Shown: in pieces, positions 1,067-61,390 of the stretch
Numbering within the stretch: the first letter of the stretch is position 1
Layout: every line of letters starts with the position of its first letter
NCBI GenBank assembly: GCA_949130485.1
Contig: OX422183.1
Coordinates: forward strand, 18,197,934-18,261,933
Direction of reading: 5' to 3'
DNA length: 64,000 nucleotides
Origin: Agelas oroides
Taxonomy: Eukaryota > Porifera > Demospongiae > Agelasida > Agelasidae
Notes under the pieces: model-generated
What the model saw: the letters and a program-made list of their open reading frames with translations, nothing else
Databases searched by the model: none
What the model was told of the DNA's origin: nothing
Made by a program: the position numbers and the translations under genes

Positions 1067-3572
1067 CTGTTCCAGCTGCTCCACTGAATGCTACTGTGAA
1101 CCAAGTTGAGAGAGTCTCTGGTGGAGGAAGTGTTACTATCACAGCTAGCTGGATACGACCACCAAACTATGAGCTGTTTGATATTGATCGGTATGATATC
1201 AATGTGTCCTCAACATCTGGTGTACAGCAGATAGCAATCACAGTCAATGGTAGTAGTAACGGCACTGTGATTACTGTGGCTGAGAACCCCAGTAATGTAC
1301 ACCCAAGCACTACCTTCACCATCACCATCTCAGCCAGAAACAGGTGTGGGGAGAATGGTCCTACTGCTAATGCATCCTACACCCTCAGTGAGTTTTTGTG
1401 TATGTTATACATTCTCTATTTAAGGAGAGCCACAAGGTCATTTTGGTTTGCCACTAGCGTGATGTGGTCAAATAAGCAGCAAAAGTAGGAACCAAGGTGG
1501 TAGATTTAACTGTAGTCACAAGCATTTTCACAAATGTACCTCAAGTATAAGTATGTGTAAGTGCCAATCACAATTCTGTTAACGCTTTTATACTTTTGAC
1601 AAGTGTAACTCACAAACACAAGCAACATATCTGGACTGTAACTAGTTAGATCTGGCAATACGGCAACTGTATTTTTTGCCCTTACATGTCAGCACAATCT
1701 GGTCAAACAGCAAGTGTATTTGTTGATAGCATTTGATGAAATACAGTACTTATACTCACACATAATCATGAATTGCAAGCATGATGACATTATCTTGGTG
1801 TCGTGGCTTCACAAGTGCAGGTTTAGAAACCACAGCATGCTCAACACTATGAACATTTTATATGTGACATTCAGCAAGATGTAAATTGTGTCCTGCTAGT
1901 CAGCTGGAGGTCATGCGACAGTGAAATCAAGCAAAGTTCTTATCCCCTAGTTGACTGTGGTTCTCCTTGTAACCCACGGAATGGATCTGTGACAAGCTAC
2001 TCTGGCACAAGAAACGGTTTAGTAGCATTTTACAGCTGTGACCCAGGTCTGGTTCCAGTGATGGGAATGAGAGCTGTGTGCACTGGGAATGGGTGGAGTC
2101 CAAACCCTGTTGATCTGAGCTGCACTGTAGGTATGTAGTCAGTGGTAACTGGAGCATGTTAGGGTACACGTGTACGATATTGTATAGTGGAAAGGTAGAC
2201 TCAAAGCAACGTATAAAAAGAAGAGGGGATTGTTGCAATTTTGCAGCAATAAGGGTATGTTTGCAGGTTTGATTCAACTCCAGGGGTGGATTGAACCAGT
2301 GGGATTATTATGGGGGCTAGTGTGATGCATAAGCATCTTCAGTCTCTTTCCTACCATTTCCCCTCACCACTATACTTCCCAAATTGGAGTTGACATTACA
2401 TTTCCTCAGTCAACTGTGGGATACCTGTTGCTCCTGACAATGGCTCCATTGTGGCTGTCCCAAGCACACTGGGTGGTGCCGAGATAATCTTCAGATGTAA
2501 CACAGGGTTTGTTCCAACTGGCAATATGACAGCAGTGTGTACATCAGATGGAATATCACCAAATGGGACCTGGACCCCAAACCCTGCCACTTCTGTATGC
2601 ATTGGTAAGCTGTAAGTGCATGTAAAATTGTGTACTCATTGTGAATATATACCGGTAAATGGACTTTGTAATCATGAAGAATGACCCAGTGACCCGATTC
2701 TTGTTCTCCAGCCAGCATTGTTGACTGTGGAGATCCTCCCACTCTGGCCAGTGGAGTGACTGTGGAGGCATACACTAGTACTGCAGTGAACTCTGATATA
2801 TTCTTCCATTGTCAGCAACCAGGGCTTGTTCCAACACATCGCAGTGCAACATGTGGGAGTAATGGAAGGTGGAGTCCAGATCCCTCACAAGTGGAGTGCA
2901 GGATAGTAACACCAGCACCAACTGGTACACCAACTGGTACGACAATACCAACTAATACACCAGTGTCCACAGGTATAGTAACTGTCCACAGGTACTTAGC
3001 TTACAGGCTAGTCATGTGATATAGCTTAGAACAGAATTTGGAGTCTGAACATGCTGCCAATTTGCAGCTGTTGACTGTTTGCTAAATTAGTACACATCAT
3101 GATGATTACATAGCAGCTGGAATTTATTTTACTGGTTAGCTAAGGAGTTTATAATTTAATAATAATATTAGCATTGTAGTTAATTTTTGATAAAATTTAA
3201 GTATTATTATGTTTGCAATGTATTGGTAAAAATTTAATTAGGAGTAAAGCTGCTATAGAACTTGGGATGATCTCTTTTTTCTTTTCCCCTTCTACAGGTA
3301 GCAGTGATGCGCCAAGCACCTCCTGCTCGACCAATGTTGCCATTACAGCAGTTGTCTCCTGTGCTGTGTCATTCATTATTGCAGCACTGGTTGGTGCAGT
3401 GGTACACTACTGTACTGTGAGGAAGAAATGTGATTGCCAGAAGTTCTACTCTCTGACAATAGCTCGCAAGCAGCAGCAGCAACAGCCAGCACCAGTGTAT
3501 GATGACATTGTTGGCCAGTCTCAAAACATTGAACTGAAGGAGAATGTTGCATATGGCCCTGTGCAGCAGTAA
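1067..3572 (+). CDS. Receptor gene 1: FN3, three CCPs, TM, tyrosine tail (5' incomplete)
   Basis: Exons by GT-AG boundaries, all phase 1: 1067-1387 (FN3; SVTITASW and TFTITISARN strands), 1951-2130 (CCP, VDCG start, NGWSPNP end), 2410-2604 (CCP, VNCG), 2712-2972 (CCP followed by a Thr/Pro stalk), 3298-3572 (helix VVSCAVSFIIAALVGAVVHY, basic stop RKKCDC, Gln run, VYDDI and NVAYGPV motifs, then TAA). The product would be a type I membrane protein with a CCP ectodomain. Its FN3 is of a second type, shared with gene 4 and unlike the SPPRTP-type FN3 of genes 3, 5 and 7. No Ig or signal-peptide exon is seen upstream, so the gene is 5'-incomplete or starts outside the window. No stop or frameshift was found. 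The domain calls are firm; a role in surface recognition is inference. Confidence 0.75.
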
Positions 3573-4455
3573 AATTTAGATTATAACTTTATTCTTAAGG
3601 TGATTTTGATGAGGTGATTTTATGTGCATAGGATTATAGCCTATACTGTTCTACAACATTGTGATCACAGTGCACACACAGCATATAGCTATCTACTATA
3701 TGGAGAGCTGACACAACTCGGTACCTTGGGATATGGATTTAACACTATCTACAGATTCTCAGTATTCATCGCCAGTTTGCACAGCTACATGCATGTGCCA
3801 GTTTGGTAGGGCAGTGTAATGTGATAGATACGTAGAGGTCCTGTAACATTGAACAATTCTCCATCAGCTATTAAATCTAATTAAGCTAGCCATTTTTCAA
3901 TGAATCTAGCTACCCTGGTAAACACTGCCTTCAACTCAGAACTCAGAGCTTCAATCTGAGCAGTGGCTAACATTGATAACATGGATATGTAAGAAACAGA
4001 AACTTCCAATCAACATCATTATACTGACCATTCTAGCAGGAAGAGAACAGGCAATTGGCTAATCAAGATGTGTACAATATCTGTGTAAACGCTTCCTTGC
4101 ATATGCAGTCACACTGCTGTCCTGTGACCACATGTATTGCAGGGCCTTTAGCACTGTCCACTGGCCACTTGTATTGCGAGATGCATTCAATGATCATTTG
4201 TATTGCAAAGTCTTGGACACTGTGTGACCACTTGTACGATTTATGTAAGAGTATCAATACCCTAGCTGTATGTACTAGCTCTCACCAGTAAATTTGCAAT
4301 TGGGAGCTAGTGTCAATCACTTTATTGGGCTCCCCTCAAATGGTGATAACACTGTAGGCATACAATCCCAATTAGCTAAGCATACTGAATACAATACGCG
4401 TCAACAATCCGTATAGAGCTCCTTGTCTAATCCTTCATGGGTAGCTATACAAAGC
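3573..4455. other. Spacer between gene 1 and gene 2
   Basis: No coding exon recognised. Around 4212-4233 lies TTGGACACTGTGTGACCACT, a block that recurs about 265-430 bp upstream of the ATG of genes 6, 7 and 9, so part of this spacer belongs to the gene 2 upstream region. Confidence 0.45.
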
Positions 4456-4632
4456 GAGTTTACACAGTACTTTGTCTAAATGTAAACCAAGCCTTGTGAT
4501 GTCATAGAGGGCAAATTGTACCGGATGTGTTTAGTTAATACAGTTACATCTTTCCGGTACCTGATCGCAAAAAACCGTCCGAAGTCAGTTTTGAGTGAGA
4601 AGGCTAAGCTAGGTGTTGGCAGCTCTATCATG
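4456..4632 (+). promoter_or_regulatory. Conserved 5' region and ATG exon of gene 2
   Basis: This block is shared with genes 7 and 9. It has GTTTACA and TGTAAAC half-sites around CTTTGTCTAAATG, a CRE-like TGATGTCA at 4497-4504, then a transcribed-looking leader ending CTATCATG followed directly by donor GTGAGT. The ATG at 4630-4632 is therefore the last codon of its exon. The start site of transcription cannot be read from the sequence. Confidence 0.5.
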
Positions 4633-59795: not shown

Positions 59796-60620
59796 ACCCT
59801 CGGCGCGCGCATGTGCAGCGAGGGTTACAGTACTTGGTCTGTGTGTGTGTGTGTGTGTGTGTGTGTGTGTGTGTGTGTGTGTGTGTGTGTGTGTGTGTGT
59901 GTGTAAGGTGTGTGTTGTGTGTGTCTGTTACTCAACATCTCACTTTGCACGTGATTATTCGTGCCACAAACGATACCAACCTTCTCAGCGTCGGATGAAG
60001 GTCGAAATTTTAAGCGATTTTCTCTGAAAATGCTTCGTAGCGATCTGGAGCTAGAGGGTTTCCAGTTGGTACGGTGACATGGTAAGTCGGCCATTTTTTA
60101 CTCCGCGGAAAACGCGCATGCGTAAGAATCTGGACCACGTGGCTAGCGGCCATTTTGTTCTTGGGAGAGACGTTTTTTGCGAGTTCGATTATTGGCCATT
60201 GGCAGTAAGTATGCCTCCAACAAAGGTATGCCCGCATTTGTAAAGCTGCTGCCACTGTGCTGTGTCATGTGTGTAAAAAATAGTAACAATGATGTATTGC
60301 TGCTCTAAATATAGTATAATTTACCATGATGTAATGACCTCAATGCAATGTCATATGCATAGCTGTGTTAATGTAGGTTGCATGATGTCAAATAACCACA
60401 ATGTACTGCACCGTGTTAATATTAGGCCCACTGAAGTGCCTAGCTGTCAGAACAGATTCGAGGACAGACAGGAATGAATTGATATCGAAAGGCGTGCCAT
60501 ATCAACTTGAGAGCAAATGTCATGATACTATTGTTCATGAGACAGTGATCAATTCTAGTTAACATACAACTACAATCACATGCATGCACTGCTGCGCTGA
60601 GGGTTTGGCACTGCAGTGCT
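59796..60620. mobile_element. 825-bp insertion in the membrane exon of gene 10
   Basis: It starts ACCCTCGGCGCGCGCATGTG and returns AGCGAGGGTT, a small hairpin; a GT microsatellite follows; the end has GCGCTGAGGGTTTGGCACTG. TTCATTA is on both sides (59789-59795, 60621-60627) and could be a target duplication, though the related copy at 7502-7606 also ends near TTTCATTA. No coding capacity was seen. Confidence 0.65.
59841..59904. repeat. GT microsatellite
   Basis: Thirty-two GT units inside the insertion in gene 10. Confidence 0.97.
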
Positions 60621-61390
60621 TTCATTATTGCAGCACTGGTTGGTGCTGTGGTACACTACTGTACTGTGAGAAAGAAATGTGATTGCCGGAAGTTCTACTC
60701 TCTGACAATAGCTCACAAGCAGCAGCAGCAGCAACAGCCAGCACCAGTGTATGATGACATTGTTGGCCTGTCCAAGAACATTGAACTGAAGGACATCGCA
60801 TATGACCCTGTGCAAGAGTGAACTTTAATCAAGATTGTAGCAATATTGACTAAGATTTTGCACTCATCAGTTATCACTAGATATATATATAATACATGAC
60901 TGTAGCTAGATACCAGTCTAAAATAGGTGCCTCCAGCCCCGAACTGTGAGAAATGGTACCACCTGAAGTGTGTGGAACTGCAGACATTACCATCAGACAG
61001 TAAACGGTGGAAATTTAGTGTATTCTGGATCATTACATATAGAATTTCTTCCATGAGCTGCCTCTGGCTGGTGCATACCAAAAATTGGTTTGGAGCATGA
61101 TTCCCTGAGAAATTTGGAATGGGTGTGTGTGATCCTCTTTAATTTAAATGGGTGGCATAGTCACTGGAGGGATGCCAAATTTATTTATTCAGGCATGCCG
61201 AAGCCGAATTCCCGGGGGAGACGAATTCGCTGTGACACCGGAAAAGAAATTTATTGTTACGTCACTGACAGCATTTCAGCGCAAGAGCGACGGGTAGGAG
61301 CTCATTTCGGCGATTTTGTTCTGCTGAGTGCATGAAATAGTATTCTGATTTGTGAAACCTGTACACTGTATGAAACTTACCAGTTATAGG

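What the first reader, a model, noticed from the sequence alone, without database searches (positions are those of the whole stretch)
1067..60821. Tandem array of modular Ig/FN3/CCP receptors with one shared tyrosine tail
At least nine copies or remnants lie in one orientation within 60 kb. Ectodomains vary by gain, loss and swap of phase 1-1 exons (Ig of two types, FN3 of two types, two to five CCPs, an IgGFc-like domain), while the membrane and tail exon is nearly unchanged. Constant signalling end with variable ectodomain, plus many decayed copies, is the birth-and-death pattern of recognition receptor families such as cnidarian allorecognition loci. The homology of the copies is read directly; the immune or allorecognition role is inference.
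Basis: partly seen in the sequence, partly recalled or inferred. Interest (0 to 1): 0.88.

Follow-up and report, generated by a model that had tools for sequence, protein, structure and literature searches.

The report
Sponge ITIM-tailed receptor gene cluster
A demosponge chromosome carries a crowded cluster of predicted cell-surface receptor genes that share an inhibitory-type signalling tail but differ strongly in their outer tips, a layout also seen in self/non-self recognition systems of other animals.

Summary
The window holds ten copies or remnants of one modular receptor type, all on the + strand; four (A, C, E, G) have open exons with phase-1 splice sites. They belong to a larger family: 68 of 80 tail places found in the 259-Mb genome lie in C1 12.9-21.2 Mb, 3.2% of the genome.

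Two points go beyond the finding. First, the tail carries an ITIM-like site (VAYGPV), kept in 43 of the 47 tail places read, in one, two or four copies, plus an acidic Src-SH2-like site (Y[DE][DE][IV]). Second, the constant end is not only a conserved protein. Between the same genes, synonymous divergence is about 1.0 in the distal Ig-like exon but 0.13-0.20 in FN3, CCP3 and tail exons. The FN3 exon is 92% identical between introns that are near random. So the distal exon is old and the rest young or homogenised; direct tests for conversion tracts were negative. Ig and tail types occur in all four combinations.

Best reading: a lineage-expanded family of inhibitory-type recognition receptors. 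Allorecognition is possible but untested, since no polymorphism or expression data were available. The Ig fold is likely but not shown.

The parts
1067..3572 (+). Copy A (3' part; IgB exon lies at C1:18197295-18197636, left of the window): FN3b 1067-1399, CCP 1951-2130, 2410-2604, 2712-2924, TM/tail 3298-3572
   Evidence: open, phase-1 AG/GT
5652..12317 (+). Copy B, decayed: IgB 5652-5999, CCP 9931-10110, 10264-10452 (stop at 10314), 10636-10817, 11227-11406, 11806-11958, tail of second type 12009-12317
   Evidence: that these pieces form one gene is inferred from order
14126..14189 (+). Candidate signal-peptide exon of copy C (MLLCQALPVLSLVISTLNSVT)
   Evidence: similar peptides upstream of copies b2, K and A; prediction only
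15151..18551 (+). Copy C: IgA 15151-15531, FN3a 16122-16394, CCP1 16983-17162, CCPL 17830-18036, TM/tail 18280-18551
   Evidence: open, phase-1 AG/GT
20588..21262 (+). Copy D, remnant: IgB 20588-20935, FN3b 21009-21262, no donor found, no tail
25074..27898 (+). Copy E: IgA 25074-25460, FN3a 25676-25945, CCP 26389-26568, 26644-26823, 26930-27115, 27380-27559, TM/tail 27633-27898
   Evidence: open, phase-1 AG/GT
30151..34130 (+). Copy F: IgA 30151-30510, IgGFc_binding exon about 31486-32832, tail fragment 34086-34130
   Evidence: PF17517 E 4.8e-51
38028..40643 (+). Copy G: IgA 38028-38423, FN3a 38617-38886, CCP 39120-39299, 39368-39547, 39678-39863, 40125-40304, TM/tail 40378-40643
   Evidence: open, phase-1 AG/GT
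50602..53106 (+). Copy F', remnant: IgGFc fragment 50602-50781, tail fragment 53032-53106
55564..57621 (+). Copy I: IgA 55564-55944 with a stop at 55650, CCP 56530-56709 (GC where a donor is expected), 56785-56970, 57088-57267, TM/tail 57356-57621
59138..60818 (+). Copy J, remnant: IgA fragment 59138-59344, CCP fragments 59375-59557, tail fragment 60618-60818

Best explanation
This is part of a lineage-expanded family of predicted type I membrane receptors in a demosponge: candidate signal peptide, one distal Ig-like domain, usually FN3, two to six CCPs, a transmembrane helix, and a tail with one Src-SH2-type tyrosine and one to four ITIM-like tyrosines. Proposed mechanism: the fast-changing distal domain binds varied ligands (kin or foreign tissue, or microbes); clustering lets Src-type kinases phosphorylate the tail; the ITIM-like sites recruit SH2 proteins (SHP- or SHIP-type phosphatases in other animals) that restrain or tune the cell's response. 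Tandem duplication, exon swapping and decay renew the repertoire, while FN3, CCP3 and tail exons stay young or are homogenised. Shown here: array, exon modules, motifs, clustering, uneven age of exons. Inferred: splicing of these copies, ligand binding, phosphorylation, inhibition, immune role, homogenisation.
For: Ten units in the window and 11 further units plus one edge tail in the surrounding 215 kb. 68 of 80 tail places in C1 12.9-21.2 Mb, all 32 in 17.6-18.4 Mb on one strand. 63 exact ENVAYGPV-coding matches genome-wide, 62 on C1, reversed-pattern control 0. Strict ITIM in 44 of 48 tail rows (43 of 47 places) and Y[DE][DEQI][VIL] in 46 of 48. Median dS in 21 same-gene pairs: IgA 1.00, FN3a 0.13, tail 0.20, IgA higher than both in 21 of 21; 158 of 169 pairs for IgA over FN3a with 19 genes. 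Tail dN/dS 0.19, 66 pairs. All four Ig/tail combinations. At least 41 SH2 rows in the genome. Two relatives of another source run uninterrupted across predicted junctions on contigs of 1.0 and 1.9 kb.
Against: No polymorphism, expression or binding data for this animal. Ig fold not established: AlphaFold pLDDT 43, best Pfam Ig E 0.0086 in 1 of 40 copies. No dN>dS over the Ig exon, 0 of 55 pairs. The higher dN/dS in variable stretches (0.81 against 0.42) rests on stretches chosen for their variability. Conversion run tests found nothing after correction. ITIM is a short motif and SH2 binding was not tested; the tail search found no relatives outside this genome.
Confidence: 0.6

Rival explanations
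1. The cluster is specifically the sponge's histocompatibility (allorecognition) complex: polymorphic distal domains bind like alleles or a polymorphic partner between touching individuals, and the ITIM-like tail permits fusion or restrains rejection.
For: One-region clustering with decayed copies, variable tip, ITIM-like tail, as described for Hydractinia Alr and Botryllus FcoR (passages). P0003 from another assembly has no close match here: Ig 72%, FN3 86% at best, which fits fast turnover if it is the same species, which is unknown.
Against: No polymorphism or graft data. A transcriptome study of grafts in Amphimedon does not mention immunoglobulin, fibronectin, sushi or receptor in its main text (PMC5450542, term search and passages), though that is another species.
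Confidence: 0.2
2. Receptors for microbes or symbionts: the distal domains read bacterial surfaces and the tail tunes phagocytosis or tolerance.
For: FnIII-plus-Sushi and Ig-family genes change expression after microbial elicitors in the sponges Aplysina and Dysidea (PMC6208332, passages). CCP and FN3 modules and family expansion suit it.
Against: No ligand data, and those genes are not shown to be relatives of this family.
Confidence: 0.3
3. An adhesion family without a recognition role, expanded by neutral tandem duplication; the tail anchors or signals adhesion.
For: Ig, FN3 and CCP modules are usual in adhesion proteins. No whole-exon dN>dS. Many copies are decayed.
Against: Strong motif retention in the tail and a distal exon that is both the oldest and the most variable part are not expected of neutral copies.
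Confidence: 0.2
4. For the exon-age contrast only: no homogenisation; the FN3 and tail exons are held by strong constraint on synonymous sites, or the array's 3' halves are simply younger duplications joined to old Ig exons.
For: Run-length tests found no significant tract after correction in any exon or in concatenated exons. The C4-tail intron (0.77 identical) diverges about as much as the adjacent exons' dS, which fits plain young duplication there.
Against: FN3a has a dN/dS near 0.5 (36 pairs), so its protein is loosely constrained, and 11 FN3 rows at C1 16.0-16.7 Mb are 39-51% identical to a relative's FN3. Yet FN3a is 92% identical between introns near the shuffled level (0.41 and 0.43 against 0.41 and 0.37).
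Confidence: 0.35

Closest known systems
Hydractinia Alr family (allorecognition complex)
   Same: Single-pass membrane IgSF-type genes and pseudogenes grouped in clusters of one large region (PMC11067881, passages); ITIM or ITAM motifs reported on candidates (PMC12065747, passages).
   Different: No sequence relationship was tested or seen. Alr polymorphism and function are shown; here not. This family has FN3 and CCP modules.
Botryllus fester co-receptors (FcoR) and fester family
   Same: Type I membrane, Ig plus sushi ectodomain, ITIM, hemITAM or Y-x-x-I/L/V tail motifs, many loci (53 FcoR) in one region (PMC12065747, passages).
   Different: FcoR: V-type Ig, sushi, two C2-type Ig; no FN3 mentioned there. 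Here FN3, two to six CCPs and a tail motif of its own. Fester itself has three transmembrane segments.
Vertebrate ITIM receptors such as KIR and LILRB
   Same: Clustered genes, variable ectodomain, ITIM tail, decayed copies (partly recalled; LILRB ITIMs in PMC11999971, passages).
   Different: No sequence kinship claimed; ectodomain modules differ.
Sponge SRCR, FnIII/Sushi and Ig-TIR repertoires
   Same: Large sponge repertoires that combine FN3, Sushi and Ig domains (PMC6208332, passages).
   Different: No SRCR or TIR domain was found in the ten exons scanned; no ITIM tail is described in the passages that I read.

Membership tests
ITIM-bearing inhibitory receptors (class by motif and topology) | [VILS]xYxx[VIL] in the cytoplasmic tail | tested here: met
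   44 of 48 tail rows, 43 of 47 places; consensus recalled
ITIM-bearing inhibitory receptors (class by motif and topology) | Single-pass type I membrane protein | tested here: inconclusive
   One hydrophobic stretch before the tail; recurring signal-peptide candidates upstream of some copies only; no topology program run
ITIM-bearing inhibitory receptors (class by motif and topology) | Phosphorylation and recruitment of an SH2 phosphatase | not testable with these tools
   Only that the genome has at least 41 SH2 rows
Immunoglobulin superfamily (distal domain) | Ig fold or significant profile match | tested here: inconclusive
   AlphaFold pLDDT 43; 18 of 18 PDB hits at E<=1 are antibody chains, best E 0.18; Pfam ig E 0.0086 in 1 of 40, C2-set_2 E 0.016 in 2 of 40; three invariant cysteines and W34 near-invariant
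Sushi/CCP domain | Pfam PF00084 above cut-off | tested here: met
   2 of 2 exons scanned, 35.6 and 36.1 bits, cut-off 20.7
Fibronectin type III domain | Pfam PF00041 above cut-off | tested here: not met
   24.8 and 17.9 bits, cut-off 25; E 2.6e-5 and 0.0036. FN3-like only
Hydractinia Alr family | Sequence kinship with Alr proteins | not tested
   No Alr sequence was fetched; database searches returned no named cnidarian protein
Hydractinia Alr / Botryllus fuhc as allorecognition loci | High allelic polymorphism linked to fusion or rejection | not testable with these tools
   One genome only
Botryllus FcoR family | V-Ig, sushi, two C2-Ig, TM, ITIM/hemITAM tail | tested here: not met
   Architecture here is Ig-like, FN3-like, 2-6 CCP; only the ITIM-like tail is shared

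The most novel reading that the evidence does not exclude
C1 12.9-21.2 Mb is a demosponge histocompatibility complex with a variable/constant logic fixed in the germ line: old, diverse distal exons are kept apart while FN3, CCP and ITIM-tail exons are repeatedly homogenised and recombined with them, and the number of ITIM repeats sets signal strength. This would place ITIM-coupled recognition by clustered receptors in sponges.
Probability: 0.18. Interest if true: 0.92.

Novelty: new variant of a known kind. Interest (0 to 1): 0.72.

Why it matters
The genes behind sponge self/non-self discrimination are, as far as I know, an open question. ITIM- or ITAM-bearing candidates are reported from cnidarian and tunicate allorecognition loci (PMC12065747, passages). 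A compact region with a tagged tail (ENVAYGPV) gives a direct handle: fusion assays can be mapped against it and the tail can be assayed. The exon-by-exon contrast in age is also a natural case of how variable and constant parts of a receptor can run on separate evolutionary clocks without somatic recombination.

Tried and rejected
AlphaFold2 of the IgA exon with an 8-row alignment gave pLDDT 43; I drew nothing from it and ran no fold search. A tail-only homology search gave none of 61 candidates at E<=1e-3, which does not exclude relatives of other lengths or in species not held.

Conversion run tests: one of 15 concatenated pairs passed, and the single-exon tests used only 400 permutations, too few to reach their own thresholds. 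Repeated with 10,000-20,000 permutations, 0 pairs pass in any of seven exons or two concatenations. Mantel tests: 1 of 21 exon pairs below p 0.05 (IgA-CCP2), six genes, little power. An automated check of 11 units at fixed splice-score thresholds passed 3 (b1, L, A); six failed at one site, M at two, O at three, so I claim no count of intact genes outside the window. The flank profile has a shuffled baseline near 0.73 and little power; I rely.

Species: cox1 of the mitochondrial contig has an intron with a LAGLIDADG-type reading frame at about codon 241 (the frame's family is my reading). PMC5360047 (abstract and passages) reports such group I introns in several demosponge groups and also in hexacorals; together with the layout of the family I conclude a demosponge, without naming a species. 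'Simple purifying selection on the tail' was rejected as the whole story. Ten paper searches (listings capped) showed no paper on an ITIM-tailed Ig/FN3/CCP cluster in a sponge; the library is partial, and asked other questions.
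Full report
WHAT IS THERE. Self-comparison of the window gave 58 same-strand repeat pairs of at least 150 bp. Exon queries and splice checks resolve ten receptor copies or remnants, all on the + strand, plus one other CCP gene (H, 48290-49804). Copies A, C, E and G are open through every exon found, each internal exon boundary is AG/GT in phase 1, and splicing gives 398, 437, 549 and 552 translated positions, the last being the stop; the signal peptide, and for A the Ig-type exon, are not included. 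B, D, F, F', I and J are damaged as listed under parts. Pfam recognises Sushi and IgGFc_binding above cut-off and FN3 below it.

WHERE IT SITS. The window is C1:18197934-18261933 of a 259-Mb genome in 141 contigs. The tail exon of copy E has 84 rows at E<=1e-3, 80 places after merging split rows; 72 are on C1 and 68 in 12.9-21.2 Mb, 3.2% of the genome (the tool calls such counts lower bounds). All 32 places in 17.6-18.4 Mb are on one strand. The distal exons behave alike: IgA 50 rows, 49 on C1 and 1 on C16; IgB 45 rows, 44 on C1 and 1 on C16; the two lists overlap. The fetched 215 kb around the window hold two main architectures, IgA-FN3a-CCP1-CCP2-CCP3-CCP4-tail and IgB-FN3b-CCP-CCP-CCPL-tail, and hybrids. 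In coordinate order on C1 17.65-17.91 Mb, IgA is followed by tail type B, IgB by tail type A or B, and IgB also by FN3a (order taken from rows, not from transcripts); IgA with tail type A is the main form in the window. Copy F carries an IgGFc domain; the other 25 rows of that family all lie on other contigs.

THE TAIL. I read 48 tail rows, 47 places because one was fetched twice, of the 80 places; they were picked to span the identity range, not at random. 44 rows have a strict ITIM outside the juxtamembrane stretch and 46 have Y[DE][DEQI][VIL]. The unit NxAYGP occurs once in 29 rows, twice in 15, four times in copy L as a 17-residue repeat, and in 3 rows not in this form. As DNA, ENVAYGPV-coding sequence has 63 matches genome-wide, 62 on C1 between 12.9 and 20.3 Mb; the reversed pattern has none. 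ITIM and Src-SH2 preferences are recalled knowledge. The genome has at least 41 SH2 rows at E<=1e-12, so readers of such sites exist.

UNEVEN AGE OF EXONS. For seven genes (K, C, E, G, N, O, Q) the same 21 gene pairs were compared exon by exon; C lacks CCP2-4, which leaves 15 pairs for those exons. Median dS is 1.00 in IgA, 0.13 FN3a, 0.29 CCP1, 0.36 CCP2, 0.155 CCP3, 0.30 CCP4 and 0.20 in the tail. IgA exceeds FN3a and the tail in 21 of 21 pairs and CCP1 in 20 of 21. In a larger set of 19 genes (nine of the array, ten from C1 17.5-18.9 Mb, Ig and FN3 exons paired by position), with gap-free core codons only, IgA is 0.75 and FN3a 0.175; IgA is higher in 158 of 169 pairs, and 2 more are saturated in IgA. 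FN3a dS is 0.126 within the array and 0.164 between the array and the other genes, so closeness on the chromosome matters little. Introns either side of FN3a are 0.41 and 0.43 identical (shuffled 0.41 and 0.37) although the exon is 0.92; the introns C1-C2, C2-C3 and C4-tail are clearly conserved (0.62, 0.67, 0.77); flanks upstream of IgA and downstream of the tail are near the shuffled level (genes K, E, G, M, N, O, Q). So the 3' part is partly just younger by duplication, while FN3a looks homogenised or spread as a single exon. Direct tests for conversion tracts were negative, so the process is inferred, not shown.

THE DISTAL DOMAIN. Forty copies keep three cysteines, and W34 in at least 90%, in the pattern GExVTYTC...W...C. 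A profile against the PDB returned 18 sequences at E<=1, all antibody chains, best E 0.18; antibodies are common in the PDB, so this is a lead only. Variation is concentrated around residues 29-66, 79-89 and after C110. dN/dS there is 0.81 against 0.42 elsewhere in 13 independent close pairs, but these stretches were picked for variability. No IgA pair has dN>dS over the whole exon, 0 of 55.

RELATIVES AND EXPRESSION. Searches of 5.8 billion proteins found four close relatives, all unnamed; the rest were six fish CCP proteins and three weak FN3 matches. P0002 (363 aa on a contig of 1,928 bp) runs without gap across the Ig-FN3 and FN3-CCP1 junctions of copy C; P0001 (302 aa, 1,036 bp) across FN3-CCP1 and CCP1-next CCP of copy E, but its first residues do not match the Ig exon. 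Against E, P0002 has a gap near the second junction. They look like spliced transcripts of a related animal; intronless copies are not excluded. P0003, on a contig of 1.02 Mb, has no close match in this genome: Ig 72%, FN3 86% at best.

ORGANISM. The mitochondrial contig's cox1 is split by an intron with its own reading frame at about codon 241 and reads TGA as sense. PMC5360047 (abstract and passages) reports such introns from several demosponge groups. I conclude a demosponge, species unnamed.

HOW IT MOST LIKELY WORKS. A single variable distal domain on a stalk of FN3 and CCPs meets ligands; kinase action on the tail and SH2 binding to ITIM-like sites restrain or tune the response. The closest parallels are Botryllus FcoR and Hydractinia Alr (passages). 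It resembles them in layout and tail motif. It does not fit FcoR by architecture, kinship with Alr was not tested, and polymorphism, the key feature of both, could not be tested.

Noticed in passing
48290-49804: A different gene (H): two CCP exons, then a cysteine-bearing domain, a transmembrane stretch and another tail; related CCP exons and one relative of its end exon lie at C1:18267420-18282443 and 18294295-18294861. No Pfam hit for the end exon.
   Followed up: partly
6031-7442: A 1.4-kb array of GTCTGTCTT-like repeats directly after the Ig-type exon of decayed copy B.
   Followed up: no
33224-35336 and 51383-54324: Segmental duplication, about 74-77% identical, that includes the tail fragments of F and F'.
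   Followed up: partly
62934-63197 and 63427-63690: Direct repeats of 264 bp, 99% identical, 493 bp apart.
   Followed up: no
43786-45722 and 61253-62498: A same-strand repeat pair, 71-81% identical, perhaps a mobile element.
   Followed up: no
L013, C1:18191906-18192307 (copy L): Tail with four tandem 17-residue ITIM-like units; three exact ENVAYGPV matches spaced by 51 bp.
   Followed up: yes
P0002 (unnamed source): An Ig-FN3-CCP relative that ends in a transmembrane stretch and a short tail without tyrosine motif of this kind, possibly a non-ITIM form.
   Followed up: no
C1:18313025 and C1:18349644 (copies P and Q; L020, L023): Two IgA exons about 37 kb apart with dS 0.03, although no CCP or tail was found behind P: a recent partial duplication.
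   Followed up: no
G000:C141:13901-16601 (L032): Mitochondrial cox1 split by an intron with an open frame of about 397 codons that looks like a LAGLIDADG enzyme.
   Followed up: partly
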